NCBI GenBank assembly: GCA_963931925.1
Contig: OZ007581.1
Span: 11,184,192-11,248,191, forward strand
Reading direction: 5' to 3'
Length of the DNA stretch: 64,000 nt
Source of the DNA: Onchidella celtica
Taxonomy: Eukaryota; Mollusca; Gastropoda; Systellommatophora; Onchidiidae
Within the stretch, counting starts at the first letter, position 1. Each line of letters begins with the position of its first letter. Of the stretch, positions 6,934-57,621 are shown piece after piece. The notes beneath the pieces were generated by a model. The model was given only the letters and a program-made list of their open reading frames with translations, was not told the origin of the DNA and searched no databases. A program made the position numbers and the translations under genes.

Positions 6934-7003
6934 ATGATGTGGCTAATAATGGTTTCTAGAGGGATATTTTCCATTGCTATCTGTGTTTCTTTACTGACGC
7001 CAG
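6934..7003 (+). CDS. Exon 1: signal peptide
   Basis: Starts at the first of two adjacent ATG codons; the second gene's ATG at 62162 aligns with the first. It encodes [20 protein letters not shown] followed by LTP, a basic residue then a hydrophobic core, as expected for a secretory signal. It ends in phase 1 at CCAG|GTAATT. The 70-nt length is identical to exon 1 of the second gene. Confidence 0.85.

Positions 7004-57621: not shown

What the first reader, a model, noticed from the sequence alone, without database searches (positions are those of the whole stretch)
6934..57621. A 15-exon chain joining VIgL-like Ig pairs to a Delta EGF array and a final Ig domain
Seen: fifteen exons with consensus splice sites, every junction phase-compatible, total 2,724 nt ending in a stop. 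Known: gastropod VIgL proteins join one or two Ig domains to a lectin-type domain; Delta ligands have MNLL-DSL-EGF-TM. I know of no described family with tandem VIgL-like Ig pairs, Delta EGF repeats and a C-terminal Ig. Inference: a secreted chimeric protein that could combine recognition with Notch-pathway-like interaction. Weak point: the EGF array ends inside repeat six.
Basis: partly seen in the sequence, partly recalled or inferred. Interest (0 to 1): 0.88.

Follow-up and report, generated by a model that had tools for sequence, protein, structure and literature searches.

The report
Snail Ig gene carrying Delta exons
In a snail genome, a recent 9-kb copy of the middle of the developmental gene Delta has landed, in the right direction and reading frame, inside an intron of an immunoglobulin-domain gene; it may show a chimeric gene being born, but nothing yet shows that the chimeric protein is made or used.

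Summary
The 15-exon, 2,724-nt chain is really there, open and phase-compatible, and each exon has a homologous copy elsewhere in the genome.

Three points change. (1) The Ig exons are not VIgL: they belong to a tandem array of genes with a signal-peptide exon and Ig1-Ig2 pairs, ending in a transmembrane exon or, at three loci including this one, a terminal Ig with a stop. No lectin-domain match was listed near it. The relatives found are uncharacterised Physella and Lymnaea proteins. (2) The EGF exons lie in one 9.2-kb block (33289-42527) copied, introns included, from the Delta gene on C3 (95% identity). Its end before the next Delta exon explains the cut EGF6; DSL and membrane parts stayed behind. 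(3) Two paralogs lack the block: a late insertion into a phase-1 intron.

Whether the Delta exons are spliced in is unknown. Intactness is uninformative at this age (P = 0.28 under neutrality), and half of EGF6 leaves two spare cysteines. I read it as young, probably near-neutral exon shuffling; a functional chimera is not excluded.

The parts
6934..7003 (+). Exon 1: signal-peptide exon (judged by eye), phase 1 out
   Evidence: 11 C15 matches, its own included, span the exon; seven of them precede runs of Ig exons on the + strand
13056..13267 (+). Unit 1 Ig1, first half exon
   Evidence: Ig relatives in Physella
14222..14411 (+). Unit 1 Ig1, second half exon
15382..15494 (+). Unit 1 Ig2, first half exon
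16944..17259 (+). Unit 1 Ig2, second half exon
   Evidence: first 88 residues identical to those of the exon at C15:11109237
28297..28505 (+). Unit 2 Ig1, first half exon
   Evidence: unit 2 is an internal tandem copy of unit 1 that starts downstream of the signal-peptide exon
29438..29627 (+). Unit 2 Ig1, second half exon
30600..30712 (+). Unit 2 Ig2, first half exon (alternative acceptor at 30609)
31470..31770 (+). Unit 2 Ig2, second half exon, phase 1 out
33289..42527 (+). Delta block: colinear, intron-retaining copy of C3:67021908-67012614
   Evidence: 95.2% over 9,377 columns; no target-site duplication or terminal inverted repeat seen; a 1.2-kb probe from it finds only the C15 and C3 copies
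35704..35764 (+). Delta exon D1: first part of EGF1, phase 1 in, 2 out
   Evidence: identical to C3
40061..40191 (+). Delta exon D2: end of EGF1 and EGF2, phase 2 in, 1 out
   Evidence: 3 of 131 differ; same layout as JAG1 exon 6 (PMC2725086, passages)
40522..40691 (+). Delta exon D3: EGF3 and start of EGF4
   Evidence: 2 of 170 differ
41051..41264 (+). Delta exon D4: end of EGF4, EGF5, first half of EGF6, phase 1 out
   Evidence: 3 of 214 differ; EGF6 second half stays on C3 (codon at 67011240)
46348..46577 (+). Terminal Ig (U3), first half exon
   Evidence: copies at C15:11265184 and 11696982. Pfam ig for the whole U3 is below cut-off (18.9 of 21.8 bits); Ig identity rests on similarity to Ig1
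46677..54919 (-). LTR retrotransposon in the last intron; two 1,158-bp direct repeats 99.9% alike; absent from this intron in both paralogs
57418..57621 (+). Terminal Ig (U3), second half exon with the stop
   Evidence: same stop in both paralogs

Best explanation
The locus is one soluble-type member of a tandem array of snail Ig receptor-like genes: signal peptide, two Ig1-Ig2 pairs, terminal Ig, stop. Recently a 9.2-kb slice from the middle of the genome's own Delta gene was copied at DNA level, introns included, into the phase-1 intron between the second Ig pair and the terminal Ig, in sense orientation. Shown here: the open, phase-compatible gene model, the copy, its ends, and its absence from two paralogs. 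Inferred: because the donor gene's splice sites came along intact and the four-exon cassette enters and leaves in phase 1, transcripts of the host gene probably include it at least some of the time, and the product would be a secreted Ig4-EGF5.5-Ig protein with two unpaired cysteines. I judge it most likely a near-neutral, possibly transient, novelty. Without DSL it should not act as a Notch ligand. The array, with transmembrane and soluble members, looks like a recognition-receptor family; that role is inferred from layout only.
For: Chain. Array order (positions typed, + strand 10.96-11.37 Mb only): between 11.006 and 11.168 Mb five signal-peptide-started runs of Ig exons each end in a transmembrane-exon match; the window gene and the next gene end in U3, and no transmembrane-exon match lies between 11.168 and 11.783 Mb (one 38-aa query). 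Physella predicted proteins P0121 and P0124 hold several tandem Ig domains with no EGF among their Pfam matches. Block colinear with C3 Delta; two copies. PC's intron aligns to window sequence up to 32396 and from 44728, PB's up to 31729 and from 44851, neither with the block. Delta exons: 8 of 576 sites differ, no indel, dN 0.013, dS 0.018, against 2.25% in neighbouring non-coding sequence.
Against: No transcript or protein evidence was available. Coding differences (1.4%) are somewhat fewer than non-coding (2.25%), and I count only 2-3 derived amino-acid changes in the C15 copy against 5.1 expected under neutrality (P = 0.12 to 0.25), so weak constraint on the C15 copy is not excluded. The simulation uses half of the pairwise rate and an assumed 0.8 chance that an exon indel disables. 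One of the three loci with the terminal Ig (PC) has lost its U3a acceptor, so genes of this type may decay. 'Soluble' rests on the terminal stop and on no homologous transmembrane exon; a hydropathy scan did list seven hydrophobic stretches between unit 1 and the terminal Ig, which I dismissed by eye.
Confidence: 0.78

Rival explanations
1. Functional chimera: the secreted Ig-EGF-Ig protein is made and kept by selection, combining Ig recognition with EGF-mediated binding. It could also be made as a D1+D2 isoform holding just complete EGF1-EGF2.
For: All eight Delta splice sites and the frame are intact; symmetrical 1-1 cassette; D1+D2 alone also keeps the frame; exons diverge less than introns.
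Against: P(intact | neutral) = 0.28 and dN/dS about 0.75 on 8 differences, so no selection signal; C15 changed a residue that 37 of 42 Delta orthologs keep (N to I); half EGF6 gives two unpaired cysteines with all four exons in; DSL absent.
Confidence: 0.13
2. Inert insertion: the Delta block sits in the intron and is always skipped, or the host gene is silent; the real product is the five-Ig soluble protein.
For: The chain without Delta exons is open to the same stop; the paralogs have that layout; large intron with further repeats and an LTR element in the next one.
Against: The block brings splice sites nearly identical to those of the C3 gene, so complete skipping would need a reason.
Confidence: 0.3
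3. The chain joins neighbouring genes: unit 1, unit 2 and the terminal Ig belong to separate genes.
For: Tandem arrays are easily over-joined; exon spacing is wide; seven unassigned hydrophobic stretches lie between unit 1 and the terminal Ig.
Against: No signal-peptide or transmembrane exon match between unit 1 and the terminal Ig; unit 2 duplicates only the internal cassette; the neighbouring gene repeats SP ... Ig2b ... U3; Physella proteins hold several such Ig domains in one predicted chain, though predicted chains can be over-joined too.
Confidence: 0.1
4. Assembly artefact: the Delta block was misjoined into C15.
For: None found; raw reads could not be inspected.
Against: The block differs from the C3 copy at 237 of 8,583 aligned non-coding sites, so it is not the same DNA twice; sequence on both sides matches C15 paralogs; no N in the window.
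Confidence: 0.03

Closest known systems
Uncharacterised Physella acuta / Lymnaea stagnalis Ig proteins (LOC131944733, LOC131946978, LOC131934597, LOC131936191 and others; P0121-P0126)
   Same: Ig1 and Ig2 pair order, N-terminal signal-like sequence in several, tandem Ig domains in one predicted chain in P0121 and P0124
   Different: P0122, P0123, P0124 and P0126 have a transmembrane-like segment (by eye); no EGF in their Pfam matches; 29-34% identity to the window chain for P0121-P0123
Delta (the gene on C3; best orthologs Candidula, Physella, Biomphalaria)
   Same: EGF1 to first half of EGF6, same exon boundaries and introns, 95% DNA identity over the block
   Different: Window copy lacks DSL, rest of EGF6, EGF7-9, membrane segment and tail
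VIgL proteins (FREP, CREP, GREP)
   Same: N-terminal one or two Ig domains, signal peptide, gene clusters in gastropods
   Different: They carry a C-terminal lectin domain (PMC5433772, PMC10075465, passages); none found here
FReMs
   Same: EGF joined to another immune-type domain
   Different: EGF plus fibrinogen domain, no Ig pairs (PMC10075465, PMC7588048, passages)
Domain gain by insertion of exons into introns
   Same: Multi-exon, symmetrical-phase cassette gained in the middle of a protein; under 10% of animal domain gains in PMC2926785 (passages)
   Different: Here donor, block ends and paralogs without the insert are all readable and the event is young

Membership tests
VIgL (FREP/CREP/GREP) | C-terminal fibrinogen, C-type lectin or galectin domain with Ig | tested here: not met
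   Listed matches: fibrinogen 125, C-type lectin 150, galectin 97, C1q 58; none between 9.5 and 11.9 Mb of C15. Caveat: only 150 of 177 candidates were scored and 150 of 476; the nearest listed C-type lectin is at C15:12102964
VIgL (FREP/CREP/GREP) | One or two N-terminal Ig domains | tested here: met
   Pfam ig and V-set above cut-off for unit 1
VIgL (FREP/CREP/GREP) | Interceding coiled-coil region | not tested
   -
DSL-type Notch ligand | DSL domain | tested here: not met
   15 DSL matches genome-wide, none on C15; DSL exon of C3 Delta ends near 67033058, outside the copied block
DSL-type Notch ligand | MNNL domain | not tested
   Not searched on either copy; in Notch ligands it precedes DSL, which already lies outside the block
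DSL-type Notch ligand | Delta/Jagged-type EGF1-2 | tested here: met
   PF21700 and PF21795 above cut-off; Delta-like protein 1 structure 4xbm is the best PDB match, residues 1-171 of 171
DSL-type Notch ligand | Transmembrane segment and cytoplasmic tail | tested here: not met
   These lie on C3 downstream of the block (by eye); the chain ends in the U3b stop
Heterobranch Ig-pair receptor-like family (Physella P0122/P0123) | Signal peptide and Ig1-Ig2 pair | tested here: met
   signal peptide judged by eye, not by a predictor
Heterobranch Ig-pair receptor-like family (Physella P0122/P0123) | Transmembrane segment | tested here: not met
   Ten transmembrane-exon matches, all on C15, none in the window; array neighbours have it, so I call this a soluble-type paralog

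The most novel reading that the evidence does not exclude
A protein family in the making: the host transcript includes the Delta cassette (all four exons, or just D1+D2 giving two complete EGF repeats), so a secreted Ig-receptor-like protein has acquired Delta EGF repeats within roughly the last one to two million years, a natural case of intronic exon shuffling with donor, block ends and paralogs lacking the insert all still readable.
Probability: 0.35. Interest if true: 0.75.

Novelty: new variant of a known kind. Interest (0 to 1): 0.5.

Why it matters
Insertion of exons into introns is the textbook route to mosaic extracellular proteins, but most cases are too old for donor and breakpoints to be read. 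Here donor, recipient, both block ends and paralogs without the insert are visible, so it can be tested directly whether such a cassette is spliced in at once and whether selection keeps it. Separately, the array shows a snail Ig receptor-like family with transmembrane and soluble members that differs from VIgL; my searches found only unnamed or uncharacterised database entries for it.

Tried and rejected
VIgL membership: rejected because no lectin-domain match was listed near the array (candidate lists capped in 12 and 13). Transposon capture of the Delta block: within 60 bp of the junctions the longest shared word is 6 bp, and the best inverted match between the ends is 9 bp; repeats over 31700-46400 gave one weak direct pair and no inverted pair. 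Selection on the Delta exons: dN/dS, polarity against 42 of the 120 listed orthologs, and a neutral simulation gave no decision. At first the C15 copy looked closer to EGF consensus than the C3 copy; polarity showed derived residues on both sides: C15 at two sites (N to I, S to T), C3 at two residues plus the split glycine codon, one site unclear. Transmembrane exon in the window: a hydropathy scan listed seven stretches between unit 1 and the terminal Ig and more beyond 57600; none matched the array's transmembrane exon and I dismissed them by eye. The Rfam scan of the window found nothing. The nucleotide search of the plasmid collection had no match and says little about an animal gene. The chance of a sense, frame-compatible insertion was not modelled; three of the five Delta junctions involved (D1 in, D2/D3, D4 out) and the host junctions after SP, Ig1 and Ig2 are phase 1, so the fit alone is not remarkable.

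Full report
WHAT WAS CHECKED. The window is C15:11184192-11248191 of an unnamed 1.14-Gb genome. The closest Delta orthologs by sequence are Candidula (71%), Physella (70%) and Biomphalaria (68%), so a heterobranch gastropod is likely. The claimed chain is real: 15 exons, GT-AG throughout, phases compatible, 2,724 nt, one terminal stop.

THE HOST GENE. The Ig query gave 74 exon matches, 69 of them on C15, at 11.01-11.82 and 9.57-9.61 Mb with one at 9.84 Mb. Signal-peptide exons (11 of 17 DNA matches to the probe span the exon), terminal Ig exons (10 matches: six in three loci, one at 49% identity at 11272840, three weak ones to Ig1) and a transmembrane exon found in a neighbouring gene (10 matches) were sorted by position for the + strand between 10.96 and 11.37 Mb (positions typed in from those calls). 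The order is regular. From 11.006 to 11.168 Mb, five runs read SP-Ig1-Ig2(-Ig1)-TM. The window gene reads SP-Ig1-Ig2-Ig1-Ig2-[Delta]-U3, and the next gene SP-Ig1-Ig1-Ig2-U3. Not everything fits: there is a transmembrane match at 10961844 without a matched gene in the sorted stretch, a partial SP match at 11129375, an orphan Ig1a exon just upstream of this gene (11190242), and a unit at 11.36 Mb without a matched start or end. The minus-strand part of the array was not sorted. Unit 2 is an internal copy of unit 1 that begins downstream of the signal-peptide exon, which favours one gene. dN/dS is 0.51 for unit 1 against unit 2 (0.118/0.232), and for U3 0.35 (window-PC), 0.79 (window-PB) and 0.40 (PC-PB). 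Pfam's ig model reaches only 18.9 bits on U3, below its cut-off of 21.8; that U3 is an Ig domain rests on its similarity to Ig1.

NOT VIgL. VIgL proteins join N-terminal Ig to a C-terminal lectin domain (PMC5433772 and PMC10075465, passages). Fibrinogen, C-type lectin, galectin and C1q searches list no match between 9.5 and 11.9 Mb of C15; only 150 of 177 and 150 of 476 candidates were scored, so a weak one could be missed. In the protein collection the five-Ig chain found 3 relatives, all Physella (where only the 7,994 candidates sharing most words were scored), and a profile found 5, of which 2 were already known: six in all, five from Physella and one from Lymnaea. They are Ig-only or Ig plus transmembrane proteins named 'uncharacterized', 'unnamed' or 'Ig-like domain-containing'. 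The searches need shared 5-residue words, so absence from other snails is not shown.

THE DELTA BLOCK. Window 33289-42527 aligns as one colinear block to C3:67021908-67012614 (95.2% over 9,377 columns), introns included. C3 carries DSL, EGF repeats, a membrane segment and a tail; its MNNL exons were not looked for. The DSL exon ends near C3:67033058, and the second half of EGF6 starts at 67011240; both lie outside the block. That explains the array ending inside repeat six. A 1.2-kb intronic probe finds only the C15 and C3 copies. The D1/D2 boundary, phases 2 and 1, is the one described for exon 5/6 of Notch-ligand genes (PMC2725086, passages).

INSERTION SITE. In two paralogs (PB: C15, + strand, from 11260001; PC: C15, minus strand, 11.694-11.705 Mb) the intron between Ig2b and U3a aligns to window sequence up to 32396 (PC; 31729 in PB) and from 44728 (PC; 44851 in PB). 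Neither paralog has the Delta block. PB has 436 bases not fetched, but these lie between U3a and U3b. In the gap the paralogs carry other sequence (about 3.8 kb in PC, 1.1 kb in PB), so the exact pre-insertion sequence is not shown. No transposon signature was found at the junctions. Non-coding divergence from C3 is 2.76% over the block and 2.25% from 35765 on; the first 2.4 kb is more diverged (3.1-5.2%) for unknown reasons. At a neutral rate of 1e-8 per year, the figure assumed for snails in PMC7494358 (passage), this is about 1.1-1.4 million years; rough.

IS IT USED? Between C15 and C3, 8 of 576 coding sites differ, with no indel and all splice dinucleotides intact. By Nei-Gojobori counting there are 6 nonsynonymous and 2 synonymous differences. 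Polarity against 42 of the 120 listed orthologs puts two derived residues on C15, one at a site where 37 of 42 have N, and two plus the split glycine codon on C3; one site is unclear. Under neutrality of the C15 lineage the exons would still be intact with P = 0.28, and 5.1 nonsynonymous changes are expected against 2-3 counted (P = 0.12 to 0.25). So the intact frame is no evidence of function, and function is not excluded. If all four exons are included, the EGF part has 32 cysteines, five full repeats plus two. D1+D2 alone is also in frame and, by the domain layout, would hold just EGF1 and EGF2.

MECHANISM. Notch trans-activation depends on the DSL domain (PMC3415683, passages), which is absent. 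I therefore do not expect Notch signalling. A secreted product with a changed spacer between Ig domains is the plain expectation. Interaction of Delta EGF repeats with other proteins is open.

LITERATURE. Searches on FREP/CREP/GREP with EGF, Delta/EGF/exon shuffling/segmental duplication in molluscs (41), polymorphic transmembrane clusters (60), VIgL (61), Physella Ig gene clusters (71), symmetrical exon shuffling (72) and soluble Delta (73) listed nothing describing this combination or this Ig family; of these papers I saw listings, and passages only for those cited. Domain gain by insertion into introns accounts for under 10% of animal cases in PMC2926785 (passages), and 28 of 49 middle gains by novel exons there have symmetrical phases.

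VERDICT. Observation confirmed; interpretation partly supported. It is a young partial Delta duplication in an intron of a soluble-type member of a snail Ig receptor-like array. It is a candidate for exon shuffling in progress and remains to be shown at RNA level.

Noticed in passing
46677-54919: Very young LTR retrotransposon on the minus strand, long terminal repeats with 1 mismatch in 1,158 bp, one 1,544-aa ORF; absent from the same intron of both paralogs.
   Followed up: partly
6038-6272: Orphan Ig1 first-half exon just upstream of the signal-peptide exon, in a stretch 94% like 13042-13457: probably a remnant of a duplicated unit.
   Followed up: no
C15:11109237-11109500 and window 16944-17207: Ig2b exons of separate array genes identical at protein level, and other units with equal scores: recent duplication or gene conversion in the array.
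   Followed up: no
L008 892-3147 (C5:43.738 Mb): Long open frame with three DSL-like domains, EGF-like repeats and serine/threonine-rich linkers; an unusual multi-DSL protein.
   Followed up: no
33289-35703: First 2.4 kb of the Delta block is 3.1-5.2% diverged from C3, against about 2% further on; unexplained.
   Followed up: no
43515-44447: Mobile-element-like ORF (DUF7869 match below its cut-off) about 1 kb after the Delta block; possibly part of the insertion history.
   Followed up: partly
59059-59427: Near-identical ORFs on opposite strands: an inverted-repeat element.
   Followed up: no
C15:11697 kb (paralog PC): Terminal Ig exon has lost its acceptor AG at the homologous place although its frame is open.
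   Followed up: no
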